A stretch of DNA of 53,954 nt, from the NCBI RefSeq assembly GCF_010672455.1, contig NZ_JAAHGO010000061.1:1-53954 (forward strand). Reading direction: 5' to 3'. This document shows, piece by piece, positions 29,488 through 44,347 of the stretch. The notes beneath the pieces are model-generated. The model was given only the letters and a program-made list of their open reading frames with translations, ran no database searches and was not told the DNA's origin. How positions within the stretch are numbered: position 1 is the stretch's first letter; every line of letters begins with the position of its first letter. A program made the translations under genes and the position numbers. This DNA comes from Okeania sp. SIO2C9. Its GTDB lineage: Bacteria > Cyanobacteriota > Cyanobacteriia > Cyanobacteriales > Microcoleaceae.

Positions 29488-30402
29488 TCAGATAAGCGGG
29501 TTTGATTTAATTTCTAAAACACCTGTGTCACCATCAATATGGGCCTCAACTCCTACAGGTAAAGCTGCATTTGGACTATCATGGCCAAAAGGAAGGTCGG
29601 AAACGATGGGAATGTTTAAATCAGCCAGGCGATCGCGCAATACGTCTTCAACAGTAAACTCTGTATTATTCATAAGGCCAGGGGAACATTGACTAAACCG
29701 CCCCAGAGCAATACCATTTACCTGCTGTAAAACCCCAGCCATCCGCCAGTGGGTCAACATTCGGTCAATACGGTAAGGAACTTCATTTGTATCTTCTAAG
29801 GCTAAAATTGTCCCACTCAAATCTGGTTGATACTTAGTGCCTAATAAATGACCAGCTACAGTTAAATTTGCAGGCATTAAATATCCCTTGGCCTGGCCTC
29901 CACCCCAACCATTGCCTTTTAAAGGTTCTAGGGAACGACCCTCCACCAAGTCAAATAGTCGTTGAATTGACCACTCTGGTTCCGCAGCTAAAGTAGTTAA
30001 TAATGGACCATGAACACAGGAAAAATTGCTAATTTTACTAAAAGTCCACAGCAGGGCAGTAATATCAGAAAAACCAATCAACCATTTAGGAATAGGCAAT
30101 GAAAAATCATTGAGGTTTGGCCAGTTTTCGAGTAAGCGAGTCGTGCCATAACCACCCCTAGAGCAGAGAAGACCACGATAATTTTCATTACTCATCGCTG
30201 CTATTAATTGAGTGAAGCGACTTTCGTCTGTACCTGCTAAATAACCCCATTGTTCATCATAACCAGGAGTTAATTCTACTTGGTAGTCATGCGATCGCCA
30301 AATTTCCACTCCCTTTTCAAAAGCATCTAATTCTCGCAGACAACCGCTTGGTGAAATAACTTGTAGTAAGTCACCAGGTTTTAACCAATTTTGATTTAGC
30401 AT
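29488..30402 (-). CDS. LD-carboxypeptidase (S66 family)
   Basis: Removes the terminal D-alanine from muropeptide tetrapeptides during murein recycling; a serine peptidase of family S66, 304 residues from ATG 30402. The frame is open upstream to 30483, but those codons lie in interspersed repeat sequence, so MLNQNWLKPGD is the better start. Seen in order: LKPGDLLQVISPSG, CSRGGYGTTRLL, the nucleophile Ser in IGFSDITALLW, the Glu in LEDTNEVPYRIDRML, and the His in PFGHDSPNAALPVG. The catalytic triad is thus complete. Some members instead cleave microcin C-type peptides (MccF); the sequence here does not decide. No signal peptide, so cytosolic. Confidence 0.9.
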   Translation of the reverse strand: MLNQNWLKPGDLLQVISPSGCLRELDAFEKGVEIWRSHDYQVELTPGYDEQWGYLAGTDESRFTQLIAAMSNENYRGLLCSRGGYGTTRLLENWPNLNDFSLPIPKWLIGFSDITALLWTFSKISNFSCVHGPLLTTLAAEPEWSIQRLFDLVEGRSLEPLKGNGWGGGQAKGYLMPANLTVAGHLLGTKYQPDLSGTILALEDTNEVPYRIDRMLTHWRMAGVLQQVNGIALGRFSQCSPGLMNNTEFTVEDVLRDRLADLNIPIVSDLPFGHDSPNAALPVGVEAHIDGDTGVLEIKSNPLI

Positions 30403-30715
30403 ATTATTATTTAGGGAATAGGGAACTAGGGAGCTAGGGATAGATAATATCATATCCACTGGGGCGCGTTTGTGTAAATTCAAGGGTGAATATTATGAAT
30501 ATATATAGGAAATTGGTAGTCCTGCATGGTAATGGTGAGGATATATATTTTTTAATTTCTCCCACACTCCCCACACTCCCCACACTCCCCACACTCCCCC
30601 ACTCCCTCTACCATTACTATGCACCACCACCTAGGAAATTTAAGTTTTTTTCTTGCTGTTATATTAACTTAAGCCTTCCTGCCTCTTCATTCTTCCCTCT
30701 TCATTCTTCCTTCTT
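30403..30715. repeat. Repeat-only spacer
   Basis: Contains GATAATATCATATCCACTGGGGCG at 30445-30470 (a block repeated at 45172-45196), CCCCACACTC microsatellite at 30562-30602 and TTCATTCTTCC iterations. No gene. It separates the ldcA-like gene from the RsbW-like gene. Confidence 0.5.
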
Positions 30716-31138
30716 TTACCCAACTCTATTCACAACTAAAATATTACGATTTTTGTCACCCACTCGTTTATACATAAACTGATCGACACTGTCTTTTGCT
30801 AAATATACTCCTAATCCACCCATAGGGCGTTTTTCTAAGGCTTGTTGTAAAGTTTCTTCTGTTACCATTTCTGCTTGAGTAGGATCGTAAGGTATAGCTG
30901 TATCTTCAATATAAACAGTTAAATTTTGCTCATTTATTTCGGCTTGTATAGAAATATTCCCTGCTAAACCAGCTTCATCATAGCCATGAGTAATAATATT
31001 TGTTGCTATTTCATCTACTGCTAAACGTAATTTATATGATGCTTTTTTTTCTAAACCAGCTTCTTTTCCTGCCGACATAATATATTGACCAATTTTTCCT
31101 AAAGAGTCTAGGCTACCTGACACTATTAAAGGTTCCAT
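30716..31138 (-). CDS. RsbW-like anti-sigma/STAS kinase (icfG cluster)
   Basis: 140-residue GHKL-type Ser/Thr kinase that phosphorylates STAS proteins, matching the Synechocystis Slr1861 position and type. N box DEIATNIITHGY, G1-type motif EDTAIPYDP (Asp in ED), and G2-type PMGGLGVYLAKDSVD are present, so it should bind ATP. A strong ribosome site AAAAAAGGAGCATT precedes ATG. It is the last gene of the cluster; the pseudogene of its phosphatase ends 39 bp upstream. By analogy with the Rsb/Spo and icfG systems it would phosphorylate the two STAS proteins at 32273 and 37011. Its final target (a sigma factor or other protein) cannot be told. Confidence 0.9.
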   Translation of the reverse strand: MEPLIVSGSLDSLGKIGQYIMSAGKEAGLEKKASYKLRLAVDEIATNIITHGYDEAGLAGNISIQAEINEQNLTVYIEDTAIPYDPTQAEMVTEETLQQALEKRPMGGLGVYLAKDSVDQFMYKRVGDKNRNILVVNRVG

Positions 31139-31240
31139 AATGCTCCTTTTTTGAGTTTTTTTTAGTAATAGTTTTCATTAATTTCTACGCACCGCTAACA
31201 TTGTAAGATCATCAAATTGTGGCGCATCATCAATATAAGT

Positions 31241-31484
31241 AGGGCTTGCTGATTAAATCTAAAAGCATTGACATATAAAGACAAGTGCTTTTTTTAGGTC
31301 AAAAAAAGTACGCCTGTTTGAGCTATTCATGCTCATGCATGGAGCGTATTTTAGGCGCATAGTTGGACAGAAACATCCAGAAAAATTCTTGCTCCTACAT
31401 CCTAGCTCATTCCCATTTCTCCTGTATCCTGTATCCTGTATCCTGTATTCTACCCTCACCCATAAGACTTTTTCAGCAAACCCT
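31241..31484. mobile_element. 244-bp miniature element inserted in the icfG pseudogene
   Basis: Ends AGGGCTTGCTGA and TTTTTCAGCAAACCCT; AAGT lies directly outside both ends (31237-31240, 31485-31488). Excision restores the phosphatase reading ...NLFT-YIDDAPQF.... The interior has no gene and contains a CCTGTATCCTGTAT microsatellite. Sister copies: 32003, 33156 and 36124. Confidence 0.9.
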
Positions 31485-31622
31485 AAGTAAATAAATTATC
31501 TTTAATGCGTTTCATCAATTATGATGCATAACTAGCAGATTTTTATACTATTTATTTTTGCTTATTATCTGTAAATAACTTTCCTTCAGGAGATTTTGCC
31601 TCAGTATAACTGATTAGTATAT

Positions 31623-31905
31623 CTGCTTCATAAAACCGATATAAAACGTCACAAGTGTCACATTTTAATGTTTACTTCCTGCTTCCACCGGAACTGTCGG
31701 CAGCACTCCGTCCACAGGCATCAACGGTCAAGCTGACCGCATTACTTAAATTAATACTTGCGTCTTATACCCGGTCTATAGATATCCCACAATCACCGCA
31801 GTCATAAGTACGATTATTTAAGGGCATATCTTGAACATGACCACAGTAGGAGCAAGTTTTTGAAGATGGAAAAAACCTATCAACTACTACTAATTTAGAA
31901 AAGCA
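31623..31905 (-). pseudogene. TnpB relic (zinc finger to right end)
   Basis: Minus strand: RFFPSSKTCSYCGHVQDMP then NRTYDCGDCGISIDRV, a four-cysteine zinc finger and the last RuvC motif of a classical TnpB. An in-frame stop follows SIDRV, then DASINLSNAVSLTVDACG. The non-coding tail ends GTTTTATGAAGCAG at 31623, as in the relic at 16393. The 5' two-thirds of the gene and the middle of the phosphatase are both missing, so a deletion followed the insertion. Confidence 0.8.
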
Positions 31906-32002
31906 TCGTCAAAGTCTCCAGCTACTTGCTTGGCCTGATGAAAACAGGCAACTATTTTCCAATCATCCAGCTTAGGAATATCGTAGGGAAGAAAGTCTAT
32001 TT

Positions 32003-32202
32003 AGGGCTTGCTGATTAATTCTCAAAGCATTTATATATAAAGGTTTGAACAATTTTATAACTTTAAAAAATAACTGGTTTTCAGCTCTTCATGCTCAAAA
32101 AGTTGGCATTTTGGGCGCATAGTTGGGTAAAAAAAATCTCCCCTACTCCCCTACACAAGCGCTCCCCTACTCCTGAAAAAAGACTAGTGAAGCGCAAACC
32201 CT
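32003..32202. mobile_element. 200-bp miniature element, same family as 31241
   Basis: AGGGCTTGCTGATTAATTC at the left, GCGCAAACCCT at the right, with ATTT flanking both sides (31999-32002 and 32203-32206). It lies at the 5' edge of the surviving icfG fragments, so it too may have inserted in that gene. Confidence 0.85.
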
Positions 32203-32272
32203 ATTTAAAATTGTACGGGCGAACCTTTGTTCGCCTCTACTACTGACTATTTCTTCAATGCATAAATTTTGT

Positions 32273-32611
32273 TCAAATATTCTCTACCTTAGCTGCATCA
32301 TATTCATCCAGTAAATAAATACTTTGATCGAAACCTGTTTTCTTGATGGTATCCAGCACCATTTCTTGAACACCTACCATATAAATATCAACACCTGTTC
32401 CCATTTTTTGTTTGGAGAAAATCAATACCCGGAGACCCGCACTTGCCATATATTCTAGGTCATTCATTATTAAAACAAGTCTTTTCGGGTTTTCGGCTGC
32501 TGCTTCCTCTACTTTTTTCTTAAAAGCTGGAGCGGTAGACCCATCTAGCTCTCCAGATAAAGTTATTTTAGCGATGCCGTTTGTTGTTTCTAGAGTTGCT
32601 TCAAAAGCCAT
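32273..32611 (-). CDS. STAS-domain anti-sigma antagonist (Slr1859-like)
   Basis: 112 residues, a single STAS domain. The conserved phosphoacceptor position is Ser57 in YMASAGLRVL. Partner-switching logic: phosphorylated by the RsbW-like kinase and dephosphorylated by the (here lost) PP2C. The start is supported by AAGGGAAAATT before ATG. In the Synechocystis cluster two such STAS proteins exist; by order this one corresponds to Slr1859. The gene appears intact while its phosphatase neighbour is not. Confidence 0.92.
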   Translation of the reverse strand: MAFEATLETTNGIAKITLSGELDGSTAPAFKKKVEEAAAENPKRLVLIMNDLEYMASAGLRVLIFSKQKMGTGVDIYMVGVQEMVLDTIKKTGFDQSIYLLDEYDAAKVENI

Positions 32612-33155
32612 AATTTTCCCTTATTTATTAATTTCGTCGTAATTTATACTACTGAGCGATATTTTTGGTTTTTCTATCATATCATTCCTGAGTTATATCA
32701 TGTTCGGATAATTAGTAGACATCTCCACCAAAATAGGGGACAGGGAACAGGGAGAATTAACGAAGTCAGAAGTTAGTAGGGGCGAACGGCCGTTTGCTTC
32801 GCATAACTATCGTTAACGCCCGTACAGAAGTTATTTTTGTAACGGGGATTTGAGCAATTCTCCAAAAATATTTCGCTTTAAAAGGCAAGGTTTTATACTA
32901 ATTTCCATGCATTAATGTTCTTCTTTATGAAGATTTCAGTTATTAAGTAATAATAATGTTCCAGTAATGTTTGTAACGATTATCGGTATTAAACCAAGAT
33001 ATCTTATATCTTTGAACCCCACTCCCTAATCCCTACTCCCTACTTTATACTCTCTAGGAGATGTAGCAAGAATTTTGAGATTTTGTATTAGATACAATTT
33101 TTTTGATAATTGATAATTTATGGATAATAATTGATTTTATTTTCACCGAATAATT

Positions 33156-33391
33156 AGGGCTTGCTGATTAAATCTAAAAGTATTTATAGATAAAGGTTTT
33201 AGTCTTTTTAAGTATCAAAAAGTGCGAAATTTTAAGTGGTAATGGTTCAAAAATGAGCGGATTTTGGTCAAGATTTGGGCAGAAAAATCATTCTTACAAT
33301 TCTTGCTCCTACCTCCTCGCTCCCGAGCCATTTCTCCTGTCTCCTGTCTCCTGTCTCCTACCCCTACTAAAAGACTTTTTCAGCAAACTCT
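33156..33391. mobile_element. 236-bp miniature element, same family as 31241
   Basis: AGGGCTTGCTGATTAAATC to CAGCAAACTCT, flanked by AATT (33152-33155, 33392-33395). The spacer 32612-33763 also contains AGACATCTCC at 32719, a composite repeat at 33410-33645 ending in TCAATTATCAATTATC iterations, and the palindrome GGGCGAATGCCATTCGCCCC at 33713. No gene is present in this spacer. Confidence 0.85.
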
Positions 33392-33763
33392 AATTAATAA
33401 TTAATAATTAACAATTAAATAATTAGCGCCTTGAAACCTCTACTTTTAAGAGGAAAAAGCAGTCGTTAGCGCAGCTTCCCGAAGGGTGGGATGGATGGGT
33501 TTCCTAACCATATCCAATCGACCAAGAGAGAAAAAATTTTCCTTTTATTCAATTCTCTTCCTTTTAGGGAGAGGTAATTATCAATTATCAATTATCAATT
33601 ATCAATTATCAATTATCAATTATCCATTATCCATTATCCATTATTAAACAGATGTCTAGCGATCAAAAAAACTTTCTCTTTCTTCTTCTTTCTTCCCTCC
33701 TGACTCCTTTACGGGCGAATGCCATTCGCCCCTACGACTCCTTCATCTCAACCGGACATGATA

Positions 33764-35884
33764 TTATTTTCCTATCAGAATAACTACTGAGCGATCGCCA
33801 ACTAATAACCCCTGTTGATTTCCCAATACAGGTTCAGTTCCTGGTTCCCAAGCATCTTCTGGCGATGGACAGGTAGTATTAGCAAAAACGTGCCACTGCA
33901 TTCCTTGGGGCAAACCAGGAATTTCAAACCAGAGACTTTCCCAGTGCATATTCATTGCTACATAAATATAGTTATCTGGCTGTTTTCCTTCTTTAGCGTG
34001 TTTGCCACAGAGCATAAAAGCAATAGTACGGGAGCTTTCAGACCAATCTACATTCCACACCTGGGTTCCATGCCAAGTAATATCTGCATAACCACTACCA
34101 ATATAATCTTGATTTCTGAAATGGTTGCGATTTCTTAATACTGGATGTGCTTTCCTGAATGCAATGCAGTTTTTCACGAATCTAAATAACTCCGCATTAG
34201 TTTTGAGAAATTCCCAGTTAAGCCAATTTAGTTCCGAGTCATGGCAGTAGGTATTATTATTACCATGTTTACTGCGTCCTATTTCATCTCCCATCAATAA
34301 CATAGGTACACCTTGACTAACCATCATAATCGCGATCGCATTTCGCATCTGACGGCTACGCAAAGCATTAATTCCCGGGTTATCTGTCCAACCTTCTGCT
34401 CCACAATTCCAACTTTCGTTATCATTAGCACCATCGTTATTATTTTCGCCATTAGCTTCGTTATGTTTCCCATTGTAGGAAACCATATCTGCTAGGGTGA
34501 AACCATCATGGGCGGTAATAAAATTAATAGATGTTGCAGGAGCGCGACCTTGCCAAGCATATAGGTCTGGGGAACCTTGTAATCTTTGCGCCATTTCCCC
34601 TACAGTACAATCACCTTTGATAAATTTGCGAATTGCATCGCGATACTTACCATTCCATTCAGCCCAACGTCCAAAAGCTGGAAAAGAACCCACTTGGTAT
34701 AAACCCCCTGCATCCCAAGCTTCTGCAATCAATTTACAGTTAGCTAAAATGGGGTCAAAAGCTAAAGTCTCTAAAAGTGGAGGATTTGCCAATGGCGCTC
34801 CCCAGGGGTCACGACCGAGAATTGAAGCCAAATCAAACCGGAAACCATCAATATGATATTCACTTGCCCAATAGCGCAAACAATCTAACACTACACCACG
34901 AACAATAGGGTTATTACAGTTAATCGTATTACCACAGCCACTAAAGTTATAGTAATAACCTTCTGGCGTTAGCATATAATATACTTTATTGTCAATACCC
35001 CGGAAAGAAATAGTCGGACCGTTTTCGTTACCTTCTGCTGTGTGATTGAATACAACATCTAGAATTACCTCTATTCCATTTTTGTGCAGTTCTTTAACTA
35101 GAGTTTTTAACTCATCCATCTGCATCCCTAACTTACCTGTGGCTGCATAACCTGCTTTTGGGGCAAAAAATCCGACCGTACTATAACCCCAATAATTGTA
35201 GAGCATTTCTCCTGTAATTGGGCTGGGGCGGGAATTTTCAAACTCATCAAATTCATAGATAGGCATCAATTCTACTGAATTAACACCCAATTCTTTGAGG
35301 TAAGGAATTTTTTCGCGGATGGCAGCAAATGTTCCAGGATATTTGACTCCAGAAGAGGGATGAGCGGTAAAACTCCGAACGTGCATTTCATAGATAATTT
35401 GGTCTTCTGGTGGAATTTCTAGAGGGCGGTCATTTTCCCAGTCAAAATCATCATAGGCAATTCTAGCTCGATGTTGATAATTGTCATCCCAGTTAGGAAA
35501 TACTCCCCAAACATCTCGACCTCCAATAATTTTAGCGTAGGGGTCCATGAGAATTTTACTCTTGTCGAACCATTGACCTTCCTGGAAGTTATTCGGTCCC
35601 TCCATCCGGTAGCCATATTCGATATTTTCTATATCCAGGTCGAAGATGACCATACAATAAACGTTCCCAATTCTAAATTCTTCAGGAAAGGGAATTTCTG
35701 CCATTGGTTGGAGAGCGCCTTTTTTAAACAAAACCAATGTACAGGATGTAGCATTAGAGGAGAATATGGAAAAATTCACTCCTCCAGGTACTAGAGTTGC
35801 ACCGAATGGAAAGGGTTTCCCACTACGCAGTTTCAAGTCACCGTGACTGTGGGTAGGATGAATATCAATACGATCTAATTGCAT
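33764..35884 (-). CDS. glgX: Glycogen debranching enzyme (isoamylase type)
   Basis: 706-residue GH13 enzyme that hydrolyses alpha-1,6 branches of glycogen or limit dextrins in the cytosol. An N-terminal CBM48-like region (GKPFPFGATLVPGGVNFSIF) precedes the catalytic barrel. Seen: DVVFNHTAEGNE, the nucleophile Asp in GFRFDLASILG, the acid Glu in LIAEAWDAGG, and the transition-state Asp in FITAHDGFTL. Length is normal. It is part of the icfG-type cluster between the two STAS genes, as slr1857 in Synechocystis, linking the regulatory module to carbon reserve use. Spacers on both sides are over 1 kb and full of repeats, so an operon transcript is uncertain. Confidence 0.95.
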   Translation of the reverse strand: MQLDRIDIHPTHSHGDLKLRSGKPFPFGATLVPGGVNFSIFSSNATSCTLVLFKKGALQPMAEIPFPEEFRIGNVYCMVIFDLDIENIEYGYRMEGPNNFQEGQWFDKSKILMDPYAKIIGGRDVWGVFPNWDDNYQHRARIAYDDFDWENDRPLEIPPEDQIIYEMHVRSFTAHPSSGVKYPGTFAAIREKIPYLKELGVNSVELMPIYEFDEFENSRPSPITGEMLYNYWGYSTVGFFAPKAGYAATGKLGMQMDELKTLVKELHKNGIEVILDVVFNHTAEGNENGPTISFRGIDNKVYYMLTPEGYYYNFSGCGNTINCNNPIVRGVVLDCLRYWASEYHIDGFRFDLASILGRDPWGAPLANPPLLETLAFDPILANCKLIAEAWDAGGLYQVGSFPAFGRWAEWNGKYRDAIRKFIKGDCTVGEMAQRLQGSPDLYAWQGRAPATSINFITAHDGFTLADMVSYNGKHNEANGENNNDGANDNESWNCGAEGWTDNPGINALRSRQMRNAIAIMMVSQGVPMLLMGDEIGRSKHGNNNTYCHDSELNWLNWEFLKTNAELFRFVKNCIAFRKAHPVLRNRNHFRNQDYIGSGYADITWHGTQVWNVDWSESSRTIAFMLCGKHAKEGKQPDNYIYVAMNMHWESLWFEIPGLPQGMQWHVFANTTCPSPEDAWEPGTEPVLGNQQGLLVGDRSVVILIGK

Positions 35885-36123
35885 GACTTTTGATTAAAGG
35901 GAGAATACGTTGTAGGTGGTAGGTTTTAGGTTGTAGGTTTTAGGTAAGCTAAGAAGCATTTAGATTTTATATTTCCTAGTCCCTTTCACAAAAATTGGAT
36001 ATGTACTTAAATGCTAAACAGCTTAACAAGATTTTACCAAATAATTAGGGTTTAAAGTCGATCCTCTTATTTTGAAGGAGAGGTAATTAATAATTAATAA
36101 TTAATAATTAATAATTAATAATT

Positions 36124-36366
<243 letters not shown>

Positions 36367-36679
36367 AATTAAATAATTCGCGCCTTGAAGCTTCCCCTTT
36401 TAAGGAAAAGAAATAATATTTCCTTATATTCAATTCCGTAGCGGTTTTAACCAGAGGTAATTATCAATTATCCATTATCAATTAATGAATAGACAGTACA
36501 AACTTCTTGGAAAAACTATTGCTAGCTAAAGCTTTCGGCAATCTTAAGGTTATAAACTAGCACTTTAGGAACTGTATGTGCTGCAAGTCTTTTCTAGTAA
36601 TATTTTCAGCCTTGAGATTAAGTCATTTTTTTTGAATAACTTTGTACTCTCCAGTAATTATTAATTATTAATTATTAAT

Positions 36680-36975
36680 GGCTTTGTTGCATGAAAGTAT
36701 ATAGCTGCGACTAGACTCCCGAGATGTACAACAATAATGCGCGGTAACTGCTGTAACTATTGGACAATAGATAAATCACCCCATCCATCTCCCGAAACTG
36801 AGCGATCGTGAAACGGAACGGATGTTCTATCGCTTGACTCTGACTCTATCTAAACTCAACATAACTATTGGATAATAGATAAATCACCCCATCCATCTCC
36901 CGAAACTGAGCGATCGCTTGAGTAAGGGACTAGCAAAAAAATAGCTTACCAGATCGTCTTTTGTGCAACAAAGCC
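36680..36975. mobile_element. 296-bp element with GGCTTTGTTGCA ends
   Basis: Perfect 12-base inverted ends GGCTTTGTTGCA / TGCAACAAAGCC. Inside, a block of about 55 bp starting TAACTATTGGA(C/T)AATAG occurs twice (about 36755-36810 and 36861-36917), each ending at a GCGATCG site. No coding frame. The ends resemble those of IS6- or IS5-like elements, and it sits in TTAATTATTAAT repeats, so a target duplication cannot be read. Confidence 0.7.
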
Positions 36976-37010
36976 ATTATTAATTATTAATTGTTGAACT
37001 ATTGCCTTCT

Positions 37011-37352
37011 TTAATTTAGTGTTGCCATTCCTGACTCAACATTTTCAGCAGTGGCAAAAAAGTCTAGAAACCCAGTCACAGACATAGTATCTTGAAGCTC
37101 TTCAGAAAGTCCAACTAATACAACTTTTCCTTCCTTTGCTGTTGTTTGTCGGTACAATGATAGTAATGTGCGCAACCCTGCACTAGACATATATGGCACA
37201 TTGCTCATATTTATCAGAATTTTGCACCCAGGAGTCGCTAGGGGGAGAATTTCTTCTGAAACTTTAGGTGCTGTACTAGCGTCAATGTCCCCTGTTAGTT
37301 CTACTACTGTAATATTTTCTTCTATTGTTCTAATATTAATTTCGATTGCCAT
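37011..37352 (-). CDS. STAS-domain anti-sigma antagonist (Slr1856-like)
   Basis: 113 residues, one STAS domain. The phosphoacceptor Ser57 lies in YMSSAGLRTL, with a second Ser at 56. About 50% like the other STAS protein by eye in the core, distinct elsewhere. Position between glgX and the AGE epimerase equals slr1856. Expected substrate of the RsbW-like kinase at 30716. Start ATG at 37352. Confidence 0.92.
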   Translation of the reverse strand: MAIEINIRTIEENITVVELTGDIDASTAPKVSEEILPLATPGCKILINMSNVPYMSSAGLRTLLSLYRQTTAKEGKVVLVGLSEELQDTMSVTGFLDFFATAENVESGMATLN

Positions 37353-37584
37353 TGGATTTAGTCTAATAATACTCAGGTGTTTAGATAGATTGGGTTGAGA
37401 AACGTTTGTCTAGGACAGACTAATGCCAATGTGAAACGTCTCCGTTAGGGCAACTTATCCACAGGATAAGGAGAAAACCCAACACACAAGTATTATATAT
37501 AATCCGGGTAGGGAGTAGGGGAGTAGGGAGTAGGGAGTAGAGGAGTAGGACAGGGCAAATTCTTTGCCTGGAGAGAATATTTAC

Positions 37585-37839
37585 CGAAGAATTAATAATT
37601 CAATAATTCAATAATTCAATAATTCAGGTAAAAATCCTCCCCTTTCAAGGGGAAAAAATAAATTTTTTCCTTTTATTCAATCAATTCCGTTTTAGGGAGA
37701 GGTAATTATCAATTATCCATTATCAATTATCAATTATTGAAAACCCTATATTTTTTTGAGTTCCCACACTCCCCACACTCCCCACACTTCCCACACTCCC
37801 CACACTCCCCACACTCCCCACACTCCCCACACTCTTCCT
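37585..37839. repeat. Composite repeat and CCCCACACTC microsatellite
   Basis: AATAATTCAATAATTC iterations (37590-37625), the AGGGAGAGGTAATTATCAATT composite block (37690-37740), then about eight copies of CCCCACACT(C) at 37766-37832, ending right at the stop codon of the AGE epimerase gene. Not coding. Confidence 0.6.
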
Positions 37840-39660
37840 TCAGGTAGGCACAATATTTACCTTAACTTTCACCCTTTCTTTAGTATCAGGCAATTTGACA
37901 CTCAGTTTCTCAGCATCAAAATCACTATAGGGTTGACCATCAATTTCTACAGAGCCAATTTTAATACTACCCGGAGGTAGAATATCTGGCGAAACCCGCA
38001 GAATATTATCGGGAAAACCACCAGGAATAGGTTTAAAATAAAAATCCATTGGCTGCTTATTAACCAAAAGATTAGTATAAACAGCAGAAAGAAAACATAA
38101 CTCTGTAGAGTGATAACCACTCATGGAGTGAGACCCCTTACCTCGTTCGTTACCACTTGCCAAGAAAGGAATACCATTAGCAAGAACATTGAAATAAACT
38201 CCGCCATCTTCTGTATCCAGGAACCAAGCATTGTAAAAAGCAGCAGCTTCCCGCGCTAAACGATGATATTCTGGCTCTCCCAAAACTCCTGCGAGAATAT
38301 AATATGCAAGAATAGACTGTTCCTGTTGCCACCAAGCTTTACGGTCGTGCCAAACAAAACGGTGGATTTTTTCGTCTTCACCTAATACCCTCTCCACCAC
38401 ATCATACCAACCACCCCGTTGTTGGTCGCTGCCCACTGCTGGCATAAGATCGGCAATTTTCTTGGCCAAATCCACATAAGAATCTTTAGCTTTGAGACTA
38501 TTCATCCGCATCAAATTCCAGGCAATTTTCATATTGTGACCAACCACTGCTCGGTTTTGCTGCCATCCCCAAGTATGGTCTGGACTCCAGTCTTCAAAGA
38601 ATTTTTCATTGACAAAGGGAGAATTTTCGTAGTCTGGGAACCGCTTTTCAATAGTGTCAAAGGTATATTCGAGCATATCAGCATATTCTGGTTTTTCTGT
38701 TGCTAACCAGAGATTAATTAAATATGCTGGTGCGTGGTCCCCCACTGAGTTCCAGTTTTTGGTACCTTTATTTCGTCCTAATGATTCGCTGAGGGGGTCT
38801 AGAGTTATGGGGTCTAGGTGAGAGTAGTAACCGCCGCGATCGCTCTTATCCAGGTAGAAGTTGTTGAATAGTTTGATGGTTTTATCGGTATCGTCCATGA
38901 TCCGAGGGTCGCCATTGAGTCGATATGTTTGTAACGGACCTGCAAGGGCGTAAATTTGTTCGTAAGCAGGGATAGCATCGTAGTCATCGCCAAATTCTGA
39001 AGCGAAGATTTTTTGTTCCCGCTCTCCTTGTACATCAATACCGTGATACCAATAGACAATTCCTTCGTCTAGGTCTACAAATCTCATATGGTCTCGCAGA
39101 TATTCGGTGCCTTTTTCTGCTGCTTCTAGAAAAGTTTCTTCCCCAGTCATCATATAAGCAGTTGCCATTCCGTAAACCATCCGGGAAATAGTATCAGTTT
39201 CTTGAGAGAAGTTTACCTGAGATTTTGCACCGGATAGACTTAGGGTTGTGCGATAGTTGCGGTAGTCAATTTCTTCGTCGCCAAACTGAGCTTTGACATA
39301 AAAATTAGCAAGGGAACGCACCTGGTCTACCCACCAGTTTGGTTTCTCAAAAACGTAGTCATCTGCTTGACGACCGACAAATATAATTTGTTTGGCTTCA
39401 AATATGGGACTATCTGGGAAGAATACTCCATAAGTGAATAAATACCGACCGGGTACTAACATTGACCGCATGGAACCTGTAGCATCTGGGTATGCTTCGT
39501 CTAAGTTTTGTACGAGTTTGGCGTAAGAGATCGGACTTAGTCTGGCTTGAAATTCTCTGCCGTCTGTTGTTTTGATACCAAAAATATCTGTTTCTGAGTC
39601 GTATTTGGTAACATATCCTGCGATTAAGTCAGAAAAGCTAAATTCTATTTGGGTAGTCAT
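37840..39660 (-). CDS. AGE-family epimerase/isomerase
   Basis: 606 residues, larger than plain N-acylglucosamine 2-epimerases (about 400). The first 120 or so residues form an extra N-terminal domain (FSDLIAGYVTKYDSETDIFG), followed by the alpha6/alpha6 barrel (SRMVYGMATAYMMTGEETFL, GHNMKIAWNLMR, HDRKAWWQQEQSILAYYILA) and a short C-terminal beta part with IKIGSVEIDGQPYSDFDAEK. Likely acts on a free or phosphorylated sugar; the substrate is unknown. Neighbour to STAS and DJ-1 genes as slr1855 in the Synechocystis icfG cluster. Start ATG 39660 (MTTQIEF). Confidence 0.88.
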   Translation of the reverse strand: MTTQIEFSFSDLIAGYVTKYDSETDIFGIKTTDGREFQARLSPISYAKLVQNLDEAYPDATGSMRSMLVPGRYLFTYGVFFPDSPIFEAKQIIFVGRQADDYVFEKPNWWVDQVRSLANFYVKAQFGDEEIDYRNYRTTLSLSGAKSQVNFSQETDTISRMVYGMATAYMMTGEETFLEAAEKGTEYLRDHMRFVDLDEGIVYWYHGIDVQGEREQKIFASEFGDDYDAIPAYEQIYALAGPLQTYRLNGDPRIMDDTDKTIKLFNNFYLDKSDRGGYYSHLDPITLDPLSESLGRNKGTKNWNSVGDHAPAYLINLWLATEKPEYADMLEYTFDTIEKRFPDYENSPFVNEKFFEDWSPDHTWGWQQNRAVVGHNMKIAWNLMRMNSLKAKDSYVDLAKKIADLMPAVGSDQQRGGWYDVVERVLGEDEKIHRFVWHDRKAWWQQEQSILAYYILAGVLGEPEYHRLAREAAAFYNAWFLDTEDGGVYFNVLANGIPFLASGNERGKGSHSMSGYHSTELCFLSAVYTNLLVNKQPMDFYFKPIPGGFPDNILRVSPDILPPGSIKIGSVEIDGQPYSDFDAEKLSVKLPDTKERVKVKVNIVPT

Positions 39661-39807
39661 TTTTGATTATCTTTAACTGTGTTTACGAGTTTTTTTATAG
39701 ACTTCTTGTAGAAGTCAGGGAATAGGGAATAGGGAGATTAAATTGTTTACATATATATTATATTGTCTTGAATTGATTGAATTAACACTTTTGCAAGAAG
39801 TCTTATG

Positions 39808-40372
39808 TATAGAACCCATTTGCTATGTTTGGACGCGGTATGTGCTTTTGGTAGCAGTCCTCCTGGATGACTGAGTCAGAAGTCAGGAAATTTATACTGT
39901 TTCACGGAAGTCAGAAGTCAAATTTTAACTGAATTGGTATTAGTTAGAGAATAGCAGGACTTACGCACCAAGCACCATATATAGTAGGGGTAAATTGCAT
40001 TTTACCTCTACAGATAGCGTTTTATCTAATAATTTGCGTAAGTCCTGAATAGAAGAAAAAGGTAGAAAAATGAGTAGTCCTGGTCGCATAATTGTATACA
40101 ATAACAACGGATACCTGGCACGGAAGCAAGATGCTCCCACTGTTTTTGTCACAAACATTGCCAGACAATACACGACCAATGAAAATGCACCACTACCAAA
40201 AAATTCTCCTATCTCCTCCACTCCCTATCTTTGATACAGCAAATTCCAAGTATATGAAGTACAGATATGAAAAATTAAATGTTCCCAGTGCGAGCATCTT
40301 GCTCGCTTCGGGGTGTATCTCACCAAGGTGGAACCCGCTGTAAATAAATAGATATATCAAATGGGTTCTATA
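39808..40372. mobile_element. 565-bp element ended by TATAGAACCCATTTG
   Basis: TATAGAACCCATTTG at 39808-39822 and its exact complement at 40358-40372. It has no gene. Inside are the miniature element at 39956 and, at 40234-40345, a block with a single copy of the 21-bp CTTGCTCGCTTCGGGGTGTAT unit that is expanded to 12 copies at 49018. A shorter element with the same ends is at 49398-49658. Confidence 0.65.
39956..40046. mobile_element. 91-bp miniature element nested in the 39808 element
   Basis: AGGACTTACGCACCAAGCAC to ATTTGCGTAAGTCCT. It shares the IS701-type ends, but the interior differs from the other three complete copies, so it is a distinct subtype. Confidence 0.75.
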
Positions 40373-40460
40373 TTGAGTATTGAGTGTGGCAGGTTTTAAT
40401 TTTTATCCTCTAATTTAATCCTAAATCTTGAGGTAACACCTACCACCACAAAAAGCAATA

Positions 40461-41066
40461 TTAATTGTTAGCTTCGATCGCTTCTACAAATTTTTCCATA
40501 AATTCATCTGTTACCCCTGGATGTTTGGCTGTGATTAAGTTTCCATCTATCACTAAATCTGCTGTTTGATCTCCATCAAATATTACATCTGCTCCAGCGT
40601 TTTCTACATCACAAATAATGTTATGAGCGCAGGTGACTTTTTTATTTTTAATCATTTCATTGTCGGCACAAAATAGCCATAAACTATGACAAATTGCTCC
40701 TAATTTTACATTTTCAGTATTGACAGCTTTGCGAAGAAATGCTACTGCTGGTGCTTGGTTTGGTTCACCTTTTTTGGGGTTTACCTGATATCTCAATCTA
40801 TCCATAGCGTAAGCGCCAATACAAATTATCCCTTTATAGTCTGAGGGGTTAATATCATTAACTTCTGTAGAAACAGTAACTTGTTGTTCGACAATATTAT
40901 TCTCTGGGTTAGAGCCAAAATGTAATTCTTTGTTACCCCATAAATGAGTAATATATTCTACTTCATAGCCTTTTTTAGGGAAAAATTCATTAAATTTCAG
41001 ATATTCTGTAGGATCAAAATGGTCTTCTATTAAGACTCCAATTTTACCTTTTGTTGCAGTAGTCAT
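40461..41066 (-). CDS. DJ-1/PfpI family protein (icfG cluster)
   Basis: 201 residues, glutamine-amidotransferase-like fold. The nucleophile elbow cysteine is in GAICHSLWLF and is followed by CAHNIICDVENAGAD. A GKIGVLIEDHFDPTEYLKFN start and IITAKHPGVTDEFMEKF-like end match the PfpI branch (protease, chaperone or glyoxalase-like activities known in the family; here undetermined). The gene lies between the AGE epimerase and the SnoaL-like protein, as slr1854. Ribosome site AAGGAGTAAAAAAG before ATG is good. Confidence 0.9.
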   Translation of the reverse strand: MTTATKGKIGVLIEDHFDPTEYLKFNEFFPKKGYEVEYITHLWGNKELHFGSNPENNIVEQQVTVSTEVNDINPSDYKGIICIGAYAMDRLRYQVNPKKGEPNQAPAVAFLRKAVNTENVKLGAICHSLWLFCADNEMIKNKKVTCAHNIICDVENAGADVIFDGDQTADLVIDGNLITAKHPGVTDEFMEKFVEAIEANN

Positions 41067-41298
41067 TCTTTTTTACTCCTTACTATTTACAAAATATAAT
41101 CAAACAATGAATCTACGAGGGATAACATTATCCTCATTGATTCTGAGTAACTATAATTTTACACATCATTATTATCAAAAAATAGCTATTTAGTTGCTCT
41201 TTTTAGATTTAAACTCAGATGTAATAACTCAGTCTCTATAGAACCTAATTCTTTCAATTACCTAATAGGATATATGAAAAGTTGTTTAATACTGAATT

Positions 41299-41385
41299 TT
41301 GCCCCCCTAGCCCCCCAATTCTGGGGGGAACAAGAATCAATTAGCTGGTAAAAGTTCCCCAAAATTGGGGGATTTAGGGGGCTTT
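41299..41385. repeat. Inverted GCCCCCCTAGCCCCC repeat
   Basis: TTTTGCCCCCCTAGCCCCCC facing GGGGGATTTAGGGGGC with an inner pair CAATTCTGGGG/CCCCAAAATTGGGG. This is a dispersed hairpin type common in cyanobacterial spacers. It is in the 540-bp gap 41067-41605, which has no gene. Confidence 0.7.
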
Positions 41386-41605
41386 GATGTAGTAAATGAG
41401 ACTTCTCAGACAACCTCTAAGTTTTAACTTTTTATTTGTGTCTCAATTATTATCTGACAGCCTACCTTTGTGATTTTTTTTGACTCTAATATTGCTGTCA
41501 AACAATAGATTTGAGATTAAATACTTTTTCTGCAAAAAAAAATAGTTAATAGGGAGCTGGAAACTATTATCAACTCCCTTCAGTTCAACTATCTAACTTT
41601 TTCTC

Positions 41606-42172
41606 TTATGTTGTAATTAACTTCAAGAGTGAATCAGGAGCAAATACATCACGATAGAATGTTAATTGCTCAGTCTTTAAGTAACAACCACCTCTGTGAC
41701 CACGACGTACCCAAGTGACATTTCCCTTGGCAATAGTTTCGTTGGTTTCGAGATCCACACTTTTCCACTCGAAGAATGTATGTTCTCCAGAAAACATAAC
41801 AATTGGCCAACACATAATAACTCCTGGTTGAGAAATTAACGCCCACCAATGCTGTTCCCTTTCTTTTTGTTCCTCTAGACCAAAATATTGTCCGTCTTGG
41901 CACAAATAGACTAAATCTTGATAATATTCCGCCGTGAGAATATCACCGCGTCCCTGTCTCAAAGCTTCACAATGAGTAGGCCACCACTCTTTATTTTCTT
42001 TCTCTATTTGTTCTAATGTGTAGTCAGGACCTAGCTCTGGTAATGTTGCTTCTTTCATAGCAATGATTTTTTCTGCTAGAGCAATCATCTCTGTAGCAAC
42101 ATCAGCAGCTGCTGGAACAGCTCGAGAATAATCTACTGCTAGGTCTTTGTAGTAATTTGTGCGCTTTTTCAT
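41606..42172 (-). CDS. SnoaL/NTF2-like protein of the icfG cluster
   Basis: 188 residues, soluble. The region GRGDILTAEYYQDLVYLCQD, then HWWALISQPGVIMCWPIVMF and TWVRRGHRGGCYLKTEQLTF resembles SnoaL-like/NTF2-fold proteins (cone-shaped beta sheet binding small hydrophobic ligands). No catalytic residues can be assigned with confidence. Position fits slr1852 of Synechocystis as I recall, adjacent to the CMD gene but here separated from it by an inserted TnpB element. ATG at 42172 follows a TATGAAAAAGCGC context with MKKRTNYYKDLAVDYSRA. Confidence 0.75.
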   Translation of the reverse strand: MKKRTNYYKDLAVDYSRAVPAAADVATEMIALAEKIIAMKEATLPELGPDYTLEQIEKENKEWWPTHCEALRQGRGDILTAEYYQDLVYLCQDGQYFGLEEQKEREQHWWALISQPGVIMCWPIVMFSGEHTFFEWKSVDLETNETIAKGNVTWVRRGHRGGCYLKTEQLTFYRDVFAPDSLLKLITT

Positions 42173-42298
42173 AATATCTAGATTTGTAGTTGTTTTTTCA
42201 TTGATTGAAACAAAATTGCTGGGGGAGACGAGCGATCGCTAAAGAAACCTCACCGTTTCACGGAAGTCGTAGGGGCGAATGGTATTCGCCCTTAAAAA

Positions 42299-42400
42299 GT
42301 AAGATTTTACAGGCTCAAAACTTTGACAATACAGTAATTTCAGAAAATTATTTCACATCTTAGATTTGAAACTATTTGTGACATCTCTAAACTGAATTAG
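42299..42400 (-). repeat. 100-bp repeat downstream of tnpB, possible RNA segment
   Basis: On the minus strand, from GATGTCACAAATAGTTTC to TTTTGAGCCTGTAAAATC, this block is about 85% like 46081-46182 (plus). It lies about 80-180 bp beyond the tnpB stop, where right ends and guide-RNA scaffolds of TnpB elements lie. It could be the element's 3' non-coding end or an unrelated miniature repeat. Confidence 0.5.
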
Positions 42401-42481
42401 TATAAAATTGTGCTTTCTTCGAGCTTGAAGATATTAGTAAATTTTTGTGTCTACCGCTCAACTAAACTTACTCAAACTTAC

Positions 42482-43714
42482 TTAAAGGTCTGAAAGTCTA
42501 GTCATTCGTAGTGGATCAACCACTACAGGGTTAAACGGCAAACCCTTTATTCCCTGGTCAAAAACATCAGGAATTACTTTTTTAATAATGTTTAACGACC
42601 CATTTACATCTGCATTTAATAATTTATTTTCTCTGGTTTTATACAATCCTCTTGTTACTCTTTTTCCACTAAATTTCGGTTTTTGTTCTCCATATTTAGG
42701 CAAATCATCCCCATCTAAACAGCTTGATTGAGATGTATAGGATTCTTCGGTAATTATTACTTTTATTCCTCTTAGTTGGGCTTTATACCTTAACATCTCT
42801 ATTAACCTATAGTGAGGGATATTCACAAACTGTTGATTGTTCTTTTTCCCTAATTTTATTTCTTGTTTCCAATTCTGATTATGGCCAATAATTAAGGTTC
42901 CTATTTGATGGTTGATACACCAATCTATTACCCTTTTACTTGCTGTATGGAGATAGTTTTCTACTCGACTATTTCGTTTGTGAGTTAATTTTTTTAACCG
43001 ATGAGAATTAGTTTGGTTGTGGCTATTTAATTGAGATTGTAAATAAGAGCGTTGTTTATTATAAAAGGTGTTAATTGCTTTTAATGGTCTGCCTTTAATC
43101 AAAAGAGGTGAAACTCCTGTTTGATTTGTAGTTACAGCTATTAAGTTATTTACTCCTAAATCTACTCCTGCTATTTGTTGATTTTCTGTTGTTGAATCGG
43201 ATTTTTCATAGACTATTTCTATTATGTAACAGCTACTTTTGGGGATAATTCTGGTTTCTATTATTTCTGTCTGTGAAGTGGGTATTTTTATTTCACTCAT
43301 CGACAGGTGACAAATTCCTTTTTTTAAGGTTTTTTTGTATATTGATTCATCTGGATAGGGCAGAATATTTCGGCCTTTTGTTTTATGTTTATATTTGGGG
43401 ATTTTTGGTTTCCCTAAAAATTTATTTGGCTGTTTTTGCCATGCTTTTAAAGCTGCAAAATAACTACTCCAAGCTGAGTCTAATCTTCTGATTATTTGCT
43501 TGCTAACTTTAGTTGGTAAAGCTTGATAATCATCCGTCTTAGATACTAGATGATAAAGTTGATTAAAGCTAAGTTTCTTTTTGTTTTCAAAGAAATATTG
43601 GCGATAATAATAGTTAGCTAAATTGAATAAATTTTTCGACAAAAAAGCCTTGTGGTCTATTTCTGACCACAAATAATGTGATTTGGTAATAACATGACGT
43701 TCAACTAGCTTCAT
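42482..43714 (-). CDS. tnpB: TnpB-type RNA-guided nuclease homologue, zinc-finger-less
   Basis: 410 residues, IS200/IS605 OrfB family, complete reading frame. RuvC-I Asp185 (AGVDLGVNN) and RuvC-III Asp369 (LNADVNGS) are present. The usual RuvC-II segment reads TLIIGHNQNWKQEIKLG: the expected Glu is replaced by Gly-His, with Glu285 seven residues on as the nearest candidate. The four-cysteine zinc finger is absent: after YTSQSS there is only one Cys, and a SGKRVTRGLYK stretch takes its place. This is a known alternative TnpB clade, but its activity is uncertain. No TnpA is beside it. It is inserted between the CMD and SnoaL-like genes of the icfG cluster; upstream at 43765-43810 lies an inverted repeat with AAAATTACTCAT. 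Confidence 0.88.
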   Translation of the reverse strand: MKLVERHVITKSHYLWSEIDHKAFLSKNLFNLANYYYRQYFFENKKKLSFNQLYHLVSKTDDYQALPTKVSKQIIRRLDSAWSSYFAALKAWQKQPNKFLGKPKIPKYKHKTKGRNILPYPDESIYKKTLKKGICHLSMSEIKIPTSQTEIIETRIIPKSSCYIIEIVYEKSDSTTENQQIAGVDLGVNNLIAVTTNQTGVSPLLIKGRPLKAINTFYNKQRSYLQSQLNSHNQTNSHRLKKLTHKRNSRVENYLHTASKRVIDWCINHQIGTLIIGHNQNWKQEIKLGKKNNQQFVNIPHYRLIEMLRYKAQLRGIKVIITEESYTSQSSCLDGDDLPKYGEQKPKFSGKRVTRGLYKTRENKLLNADVNGSLNIIKKVIPDVFDQGIKGLPFNPVVVDPLRMTRLSDL

Positions 43715-43999
43715 ATCCTAATTGTAGCTGATAACGACTCAATGAATAGACAATTGAGCAAAATTACTCATTTTAGTTTGATAGCTATAATTATGAGTAA
43801 TTTTGATGAACTTTAGATAAGTTTTTGCTTTCTGTATTTACCCCCGATCGCGATTAACGATATTTATCTTTTCTGTGGCAGGTTTAATACCCCACCGTCT
43901 ACAGGGTGCTGAAAATTGTTTGGGTTTTTTTTTGGAGCTTTTCTCAAATCCCCGTTACAAAAATAACTTCTAACTTCTAACTTCTGACTTCTGACTTCG

Positions 44000-44347
44000 T
44001 TAAGCGGAGGGGCCTAAAATTTCATTCAGAGCGCCGAAGCAACCTGCTGCTTTATTAAATCCTGCATAAACACAGGTGAATAATAATAACTCCTCTATTT
44101 CTTCACGGGTAGCTCCTTGTTGCATTGCCATATTAACATGAGCGCCAAAAGGGTTTCCCGGACCTACATGATCTTGATTGACTACATCAATTGCTATTGT
44201 AATCAGAGCTTTGGTTTTTTGGTCTATGAGTGGTAGACCCCATGCTTCACCTGCCACACGAGTACAAAAGTCCCCGAATTTGGGGTTGATACCATTTAAA
44301 CCTTCTTGCAGAGCTTTGTCATCTAGGACTGCGTTTTTGTATTCCAT
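44000..44347 (-). CDS. Carboxymuconolactone decarboxylase family protein
   Basis: 115 residues, all-helical CMD fold: FCTRVAGEAWGLPLIDQKTK, ALITIAIDVVNQ, HVNMAMQQGATREEIEELLL, AGFNKAAGCFGALNEIL. The CxxC pair of AhpD-type peroxidase members is absent, so it is not an alkylhydroperoxidase of that kind; role unknown. Corresponds by order to slr1853. It begins the icfG-type cluster on the minus strand, with ATG at 44347. Confidence 0.9.
   Translation of the reverse strand: MEYKNAVLDDKALQEGLNGINPKFGDFCTRVAGEAWGLPLIDQKTKALITIAIDVVNQDHVGPGNPFGAHVNMAMQQGATREEIEELLLFTCVYAGFNKAAGCFGALNEILGPSA

What the first reader, a model, noticed from the sequence alone, without database searches (positions are those of the whole stretch)
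30716..44347. An icfG-type partner-switching cluster whose phosphatase gene is destroyed
The order CMD, SnoaL-like, DJ-1, AGE epimerase, STAS, glgX, STAS, phosphatase, RsbW-like kinase is that of the Synechocystis slr1852-slr1861 (icfG) cluster as I remember it. Here the kinase and both STAS proteins have intact reading frames and Ser57 acceptors, but the PP2C gene is in pieces. Inference: unless another phosphatase acts, the STAS proteins would stay phosphorylated and the switch would be locked, or another genomic PP2C has taken over.
Basis: partly seen in the sequence, partly recalled or inferred. Interest (0 to 1): 0.78.

Follow-up and report, generated by a model that had tools for sequence, protein, structure and literature searches.

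The report
Carbon switch that lost one phosphatase
In this marine Okeania-type cyanobacterium, deletions and mobile DNA have destroyed the phosphatase gene of a carbon-linked protein switch, but the rest of the switch looks preserved, and a second, membrane-bound phosphatase elsewhere in the genome probably keeps it working.

Summary
Confirmed: the window carries the icfG cluster of an Okeania-type genome, and its GAF-type PP2C gene survives only as three remnants (31181-32000, minus strand). About 378 of 477 codons are gone; three in-frame stops, two MITEs with 6-bp target duplications and a truncated tnpB are present. All 4 congeners held have it intact at the same place.

The "locked switch" reading is not favoured. 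Kinase and both STAS genes, tested together, are under purifying selection on this branch (omega 0.19; neutrality rejected, p 0.0006), while the remnants have decayed; STAS2 alone is inconclusive. The genome keeps one unlinked IcfG-clade phosphatase (G000:C179:36902-38596) with two predicted membrane segments. Its sensor half is 36-54% identical to phosphatases inside the same cluster in 10 of 16 loci I compared.

Of 73 kinase-bearing genomes, 61 have an IcfG-clade match within 15 kb, 8 (this one included) only elsewhere, 4 none detected. One of the four, G057, has its own decayed icfG and is the better candidate for a locked switch. That the unlinked phosphatase acts on these STAS proteins is inferred.

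The parts
44000..44347 (-). CMD (carboxymuconolactone decarboxylase family) gene
   Evidence: PF02627 E 3e-13; 100% identical in G002 and G003
42482..43714 (-). intact IS605-type tnpB inserted between CMD and the 188-aa gene
   Evidence: PF01385 and PF07282; absent from that gap in G002 and G003, the two congener loci that reach it
   Evidence: no Pfam or NCBIfam hit; found in 11 of 20 further icfG-region loci at 63-76% identity
40461..41066 (-). DJ-1/PfpI family gene
   Evidence: PF01965 E 4e-17
37840..39660 (-). AGE-type epimerase gene
   Evidence: PF07221 E 6e-15 over residues 319-489
37011..37352 (-). STAS protein 1, at the Slr1856 position, motif Ser57
   Evidence: PF01740 E 1e-23; Ser57; omega on this branch at the lower bound, neutrality rejected p 0.016
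33764..35884 (-). glgX (isoamylase-type debranching enzyme)
   Evidence: TIGR02100 above its cut-off
32273..32611 (-). STAS protein 2, at the Slr1859 position, motif Ser57
   Evidence: PF01740 E 9e-20; Ser57; neutrality alone not rejected, p 0.36
32004..32201 (.). MITE-B, flanked by the 6-bp repeat TAAATA
   Evidence: ends and target duplication read; repeat family D2
31899..32000 (-). icfG remnant 1 (IcfG residues 219-252)
   Evidence: tblastn 88% identity, E 9e-15
31623..31900 (-). 5'-truncated 3' end of an IS605-type tnpB, in place of icfG codons about 253-408
   Evidence: 94% over 278 bases to an unlinked copy, L181, which by eye continues beyond the truncation point; further copies in the genome
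31489..31623 (-). icfG remnant 2 (about residues 409-457; 3 stops, 4-codon gap)
   Evidence: tblastn E 1e-10; codon count
31242..31483 (.). MITE-A inside the icfG remnants, flanked by the 6-bp repeat TACTTA
   Evidence: target duplication; 41 matches listed in this genome, itself included, with only 40 of 540 candidates scored
31181..31240 (-). icfG remnant 3 (residues 458-477)
   Evidence: tblastn 89% identity over 19 residues, E 5e-6
30716..31138 (-). RsbW/Slr1861-like kinase (anti-sigma type), intact; ribosome-binding-like site AAGGAG kept (by eye)
   Evidence: PF13581 E 4e-20; 89-94% identity to 4 congeners; omega 0.14, neutrality rejected p 0.006; upstream bases printed
29488..30483 (-). 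LD-carboxypeptidase, the conserved downstream neighbour (marks synteny)
   Evidence: directly after the kinase in G001 and G003, after a second kinase in G002; G004's contig ends before it; NF008424 E 4e-41 but below its cut-off

Best explanation
This is the icfG partner-switching cluster of an Okeania-type cyanobacterium whose GAF-sensor PP2C gene was destroyed in this lineage by deletions, a tnpB element and MITE insertions. The kinase (Slr1861-like) should still phosphorylate Ser57 of both STAS proteins. Dephosphorylation is most likely done in trans by the unlinked phosphatase at G000:C179:36902-38596. That protein has two predicted membrane-spanning segments around a sensor, then a PP2C domain, and its counterparts sit inside the same cluster in other genera. 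The switch has therefore probably lost its cytosolic GAF input and kept its membrane input. Shown: the destruction, the intact gene in 4 of 4 congeners, selection on kinase plus STAS as a set, and the unlinked phosphatase with its relation to in-cluster phosphatases. Inferred: that it acts on these STAS proteins, and that the kinase's output is a SigC-type sigma factor as in Synechocystis.
For: Break. Congeners intact, 4 of 4. Selection: kinase+STAS1+STAS2 on this branch omega 0.19 against 0.26 background (p 0.53 for a difference), omega = 1 rejected p 0.0006; three congeners with intact icfG give 0.10, 0.14 and 0.18 as foreground. Private non-synonymous codons: 14 of 99 in the remnants (3 stops included; 5 codons belonging to the inserted element dropped from 19 of 104) against 7 of 353 in kinase+STAS1+STAS2, Fisher p 8e-6, or 11 of 96 and p 2e-4 without stops; intact congeners have 4-6 of 104 at the same codons. 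Second phosphatase: in 5 of 5 Okeania; two hydrophobic segments; sensor half (1-280) matches phosphatases of the cluster in 10 of 16 loci that I chose, 36-54% identity; a PP2C tree puts it in one of two clades (split support 92/97) with the in-cluster phosphatases of G009, G254, G235, G245 and others. In G009 (same family), G254 and G159 that type is the only phosphatase seen with the cluster. G202 carries both types beside one kinase. In this genome two other strong SpoIIE-type genes, with receiver-like N-termini by eye, lie near their own HATPase genes, and no kinase or STAS match lies within the 19 kb fetched around the unlinked phosphatase. Possible precedent for working in trans: in single-contig G162 the only IcfG-clade match is about 1 Mb from the kinase.
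Against: No biochemistry. In Synechocystis IcfG dephosphorylates Slr1856 but not Slr1859 (PMC12329169, passages), so phosphatases of this clade may be substrate-specific, and the unlinked one may serve another set: 6 further STAS matches in short frames and a fourth HATPase kinase at C278:5503, with no phosphatase within the 1.5 kb seen on either side, lie elsewhere in this genome. STAS2 alone does not reject neutrality on this branch (omega 0.44, p 0.36): 3 non-synonymous and 1 synonymous private codons, where G001, G002 and G003 have 0 non-synonymous and G004 has 3. The branch includes time before the loss, so selection after it is argued from the remnant comparison, on only 99 codons. G001 was left out of the branch test because its contig lacks STAS1. 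The unlinked phosphatase was in the genus before the loss, so it is a survivor and not a new recruit. The place of the Okeania unlinked group within its clade is unresolved.
Confidence: 0.62

Rival explanations
1. Locked switch: with icfG gone no phosphatase acts, both STAS proteins stay phosphorylated, and the kinase stays free and permanently holds its sigma factor. (Rivals overlap in part, so the confidences do not add to one.)
For: No intact PP2C in the cluster. G057, another genome of the family, has two intact kinases, intact STAS genes, its own decayed icfG and no IcfG-clade phosphatase detected, so such a state may occur.
Against: The window's genome keeps an IcfG-clade phosphatase, and STAS1, which would be dead weight in such a state, shows no private non-synonymous change in 112 codons.
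Confidence: 0.15
2. Dying module: phosphatase loss is the first step of losing the whole switch, and kinase and STAS genes remain only because too little time has passed.
For: G059 shows wider decay of the cluster (kinase fragment, AGE in three pieces, no STAS or GlgX match in the 14 kb fetched) and G060 has no kinase match. STAS2 alone does not reject neutrality.
Against: Kinase+STAS set omega 0.19, neutrality rejected; the remnants have about 7 times the density of private non-synonymous codons.
Confidence: 0.15
3. Kinase kept for other partners: the kinase acts as anti-sigma factor or as kinase for unlinked STAS proteins (as Slr1861 does for Ssr1600) with a different phosphatase, and the cluster's own STAS proteins matter less.
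For: Slr1861 phosphorylates Ssr1600, whose phosphatase is unknown (PMC12329169, abstract and passages); 6 further STAS matches in short frames lie elsewhere in this genome.
Against: STAS1 is at least as constrained as the kinase on this branch.
Confidence: 0.2
4. Assembly artefact: the gene is whole in the organism.
For: Draft genome of 317 contigs.
Against: The break consists of two MITEs with exact 6-bp target duplications, a tnpB piece truncated against a remnant, and three stops; completeness 99.98, contamination 0.99.
Confidence: 0.02

Closest known systems
icfG (slr1852-slr1861) cluster of Synechocystis sp. PCC 6803
   Same: STAS, isoamylase/GlgX, STAS, phosphatase place, RsbW-like kinase; the content slr1856, slr1857, slr1859, slr1860, slr1861 is stated in PMC12329169 (passages read).
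   Different: Phosphatase gene destroyed here; in the congener protein tested it is a soluble GAF-PP2C of 477 aa. No Synechocystis sequence was compared.
HmpU-HmpV-HmpW of Nostoc punctiforme
   Same: Partner switch in a filamentous cyanobacterium with phosphatase, STAS and kinase (PMC8256260 and PMC6495340, passages).
   Different: No Hmp sequence was compared; homology of the unlinked Okeania phosphatase to HmpU is untested.
RsbU/RsbP-RsbV-RsbW and SpoIIE-SpoIIAA-SpoIIAB of Bacillus subtilis
   Same: SpoIIE-type PP2C, STAS with conserved Ser, HATPase kinase (Pfam). In B. subtilis more than one sensor phosphatase (RsbU, RsbP) feeds one switch (recalled).
   Different: Cluster tied to glycogen and carbon genes; the target sigma factor is unknown here.

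Membership tests
icfG partner-switching cluster | conserved gene order with two STAS genes flanking glgX and a kinase at the end | tested here: met
   similar order in relatives
icfG partner-switching cluster | RsbW-like HATPase kinase of the Slr1861 type | tested here: met
   PF13581 E 4e-20; kinase match in 73 of 292 genomes of the order. Slr1861 itself was not compared.
icfG partner-switching cluster | STAS proteins with the acceptor serine | tested here: met
   Ser57 of the SAGL motif in both; phosphorylation not testable here
icfG partner-switching cluster | intact PP2C phosphatase in the cluster | tested here: not met
   three remnants with stops; present in 4 of 4 congeners
icfG partner-switching cluster | IcfG-clade phosphatase somewhere in the genome | tested here: met
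   G000:C179:37760-38587, E 5e-92, 55% identity; tree
icfG partner-switching cluster | kinase phosphorylates and phosphatase dephosphorylates the STAS proteins | not testable with these tools
   needs biochemistry
membrane-sensor IcfG-clade phosphatase (for the C179 gene) | two membrane segments, sensor, PP2C, similar to in-cluster phosphatases over the sensor half | tested here: met
   hydrophobicity only; 10 of 16 loci; Pfam finds only SpoIIE, no HAMP or sensor domain, in the Okeania protein
HmpU | sequence orthology to Nostoc HmpU | not tested
   no HmpU sequence at hand

The most novel reading that the evidence does not exclude
The cyanobacterial icfG switch has two exchangeable input phosphatases, a soluble GAF type and a membrane-sensor type. 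Lineages keep either or both, in the cluster or unlinked, and this Okeania is a natural strain in which the GAF input was destroyed and the unlinked membrane input alone drives the switch. Boldest form: the two inputs serve different STAS proteins, so this strain has one arm locked (perhaps STAS2, the less constrained one) and one arm live, and the membrane type is the unidentified second phosphatase of the network.
Probability: 0.35. Interest if true: 0.65.

Novelty: new variant of a known kind. Interest (0 to 1): 0.48.

Why it matters
The icfG cluster is linked to carbon metabolism, and its kinase controls SigC in Synechocystis, where the Ssr1600 phosphatase is still unknown and IcfG does not act on Slr1859 (PMC12329169, abstract and passages). 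Finding that cyanobacteria carry two sensor-phosphatase types with the same cluster, and a natural strain that has lost one, gives concrete genes for the missing phosphatase activity and a test of how partner switches swap inputs. G057, with two kinases and no detected IcfG-clade phosphatase, is a natural test of a switch without its phosphatase.

Tried and rejected
Considered and set aside: assembly error (target duplications and stops argue against it); an icfG copy moved intact elsewhere (the only match at E <= 1e-40 in the genome is the 55% identical membrane type); recruitment of a PP2C with a receiver-like N-terminus (the two such genes lie near their own HATPase genes). The fourth HATPase kinase (C278) shows no phosphatase in the 3.3 kb seen. 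Searches on Trichodesmium pseudogenes gave listings only, as did. Searches for icfG, partner switching, Hmp genes and Okeania pseudogenes (listings) and passages in seven papers showed nothing on loss of icfG in Okeania; this covers open-licence PMC papers only.

Limits: searches scored at most 14 and 5 candidates per genome, and G009's kinase fell just below the cut-off. Its counts are not corrected for these: G218's nearby match is a fragment (188-codon frame), G294's two nearby matches are halves of one gene, G235's two belong to two kinases, and the additional unlinked matches of G066, G176 and G218 are partial. G196 and G295, counted as without a phosphatase, have their kinase on short contigs (6.6 and 5.1 kb). 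For one search I dropped four rows (two own outgroups, one duplicate, one partial) and added four; one added row (L185) kept an over-long domain cut. The branch model is my own script, not a published program.

Full report
What is there. The window is contig C276 of a 10.9-Mb draft genome. The four named relatives of its kinase are all Okeania, at 89-94% identity; the window's own record is not named. Between 30716 and 44347, on the minus strand, lie CMD, an intact tnpB, a conserved 188-aa gene, DJ-1, AGE epimerase, STAS1, glgX, STAS2, a broken phosphatase and an RsbW-like kinase. The 188-aa protein has no Pfam or NCBIfam hit, so "SnoaL-like" is not confirmed. Both STAS proteins carry the motif serine at residue 57.

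How the phosphatase is broken. Using a congener's IcfG as query, the window gives three collinear remnants: residues 219-252, about 409-457 and 458-477 (positions). Residues 1-218 and about 253-408 are missing; 99 of 477 codons remain. Remnant 2 has a 4-codon gap and three in-frame stops. The gap between remnants 1 and 2 is filled by the 3' end of an IS605-type tnpB (31623-31900), 94% identical to an unlinked copy, L181, that by eye continues beyond the truncation point. A 242-base MITE (31242-31483) with a TACTTA target duplication lies between remnants 2 and 3, and a second MITE (32004-32201) with a TAAATA duplication lies just upstream of remnant 1. The MITE-A query has 41 listed matches in this genome, itself included, with only 40 of 540 candidates scored. 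The order of events is not known; insertion and deletions with MITEs landing during or after the decay would fit.

The loss is lineage-specific. All 4 congeners held (5 genomes in the genus search, this one included) have an intact icfG directly before the kinase; three are 88-95% identical to the fourth, G003's, which was the query. The G003 protein is a GAF domain followed by a SpoIIE-type PP2C domain, and none of the four has a predicted membrane segment.

Is the rest of the switch still used? As controls, the congeners G002, G003 and G004, with intact icfG, give 0.10, 0.14 and 0.18; G001 could not be used, as its contig lacks STAS1. Gene by gene for the window: kinase 0.14 (neutrality p 0.006), STAS1 at the lower bound (p 0.016), STAS2 0.44 (p 0.36, not rejected). 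The remnants show 19 private non-synonymous codons of 104, against 4-6 of 104 at the same codons in the four intact congeners. After dropping five codons that belong to the inserted element this is 14 of 99, three of them stops. Kinase+STAS1+STAS2 of the window show 7 of 353 (Fisher p 8e-6; 11 of 96 and p 2e-4 without stops). The phosphatase has therefore been decaying long enough to show it while its partners, as a set, have been kept. STAS2 is the weak point: 3 private non-synonymous codons, against 0, 0, 0 and 3 in G001, G002, G003 and G004.

A second phosphatase. The genome has six SpoIIE-family matches. Two, with receiver-like N-termini by eye, have an HATPase gene close by (C179:77218 and C157:86967). 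The only match to IcfG at E <= 1e-40 is the protein at C179:36902-38596, 564 aa, 54-55% identical to IcfG in the PP2C domain, with two hydrophobic segments before it. It occurs in 5 of 5 Okeania, with shared neighbours in the four congener loci fetched, and no icfG-set kinase or STAS matches in the 19 kb fetched around it. Its sensor half (residues 1-280) matches 10 of 16 loci that I chose for comparison, at 36-54% identity, in each case beside the icfG cluster or its kinase. In several loci (G009, G254, G159, G165, G245, G138, G201) the membrane type is the only phosphatase seen with the cluster in the stretch fetched, and in G202 both types flank one kinase. A PP2C tree of 61 rows separates two clades (split support 92/97): one with the Okeania membrane protein and these in-cluster phosphatases, the other with the Okeania GAF type. 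Architecture and clade do not coincide fully: membrane-type proteins occur in both clades and some proteins without predicted membrane segments fall in the first.

Survey. Of 292 genomes of the order, 73 have the kinase at E <= 1e-25 and 85 an IcfG match at E <= 1e-40, some of them to the GAF part alone. With those set aside, of the 73 kinase genomes 61 have an IcfG-clade match within 15 kb (one of them, G218, a fragment), 8 only elsewhere or on another contig, and 4 none (G020, G057, G196, G295). Most of the 8 are drafts; G162 is one contig with the two about 1 Mb apart. Eleven of the 61 have an additional unlinked match, three of these partial.

Relatives that bear on the locked reading. G057, of another genus of the family, has two intact kinases and intact STAS genes, its own icfG remnants (residues about 348-371 and 429-477, with stops), and no IcfG-clade phosphatase detected: its best IcfG match is E 5e-19, among four SpoIIE-family matches. 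Since other genomes of that genus keep icfG intact (G054, G056, G058), its loss appears independent of the window's. On the G057 branch the kinase alone does not reject neutrality (omega 0.53, p 0.38), while STAS1 and STAS2 do. G059 shows wider decay of the cluster and G060 has no kinase match.

Mechanism. In Synechocystis the Slr1861 kinase phosphorylates Slr1856, Slr1859 and Ssr1600 and binds SigC; IcfG dephosphorylates Slr1856 but not Slr1859, and the Ssr1600 phosphatase is unknown (PMC12329169, abstract and passages). By analogy, the kinase here should keep the STAS proteins phosphorylated until a sensor phosphatase removes the phosphate. With the GAF phosphatase gone, the membrane phosphatase is the best candidate. 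This step is inferred. The substrate specificity reported for IcfG, the 6 further short-frame STAS matches and the fourth HATPase kinase at C278:5503 are reasons for caution, since the membrane phosphatase could serve another set.

Verdict. The most likely outcome is a change of input and not a locked switch. The wider point, two sensor-phosphatase types for one cyanobacterial switch, is the more interesting one. I found no paper describing it in the searches made, which cover open-licence PMC papers only.

Noticed in passing
L015:6333-8222 (G002) and L082:930-2831 (G056): icfG and the kinase lie in one continuous reading frame (630 and 634 codons), a possible phosphatase-kinase fusion; an AAGGAG-like site before the kinase start is still present in G002.
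   Followed up: partly
L015:4043-4456, L019:5907-6323, L082:3666-4079, L080:10559-10972: A second RsbW-like kinase, 61-66% identical to the window's, lies next to the LD-carboxypeptidase gene in G002, G004, G056 and G057; not present there in the window.
   Followed up: partly
L080 (G057:C605): DJ-1, AGE, STAS1 and GlgX are 93-97% identical to the window's while STAS2 is 82% and the kinase 69%: the cluster looks mosaic, as if recombined between genera.
   Followed up: no
L081 (G055:C872) and L054 (G055:C949): G055 holds one icfG copy with stops and a break and one intact copy on another short contig; strain mixture or duplication not resolved.
   Followed up: no
L085 (G059:C472): The cluster is decayed more widely: AGE in three pieces, only a kinase fragment, and a second LD-carboxypeptidase copy in pieces.
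   Followed up: partly
window 33151-33397 and 33562-33652: A third MITE-like copy and an AATTATC tandem repeat lie between GlgX and STAS2.
   Followed up: no
L185/L186 (G089) and L187/L188 (G272): Two genomes of 3.7-3.8 Mb carry the full cluster with a 635-639-codon phosphatase frame having predicted membrane segments, plus a second unlinked IcfG-clade phosphatase whose N-terminus by eye holds a histidine-kinase-like HELRTP motif.
   Followed up: partly
L096 (G000:C278): A fourth HATPase_c_2 kinase of this genome (158 aa) stands without a phosphatase or STAS gene in the 3.3 kb seen; its partners are unknown.
   Followed up: partly
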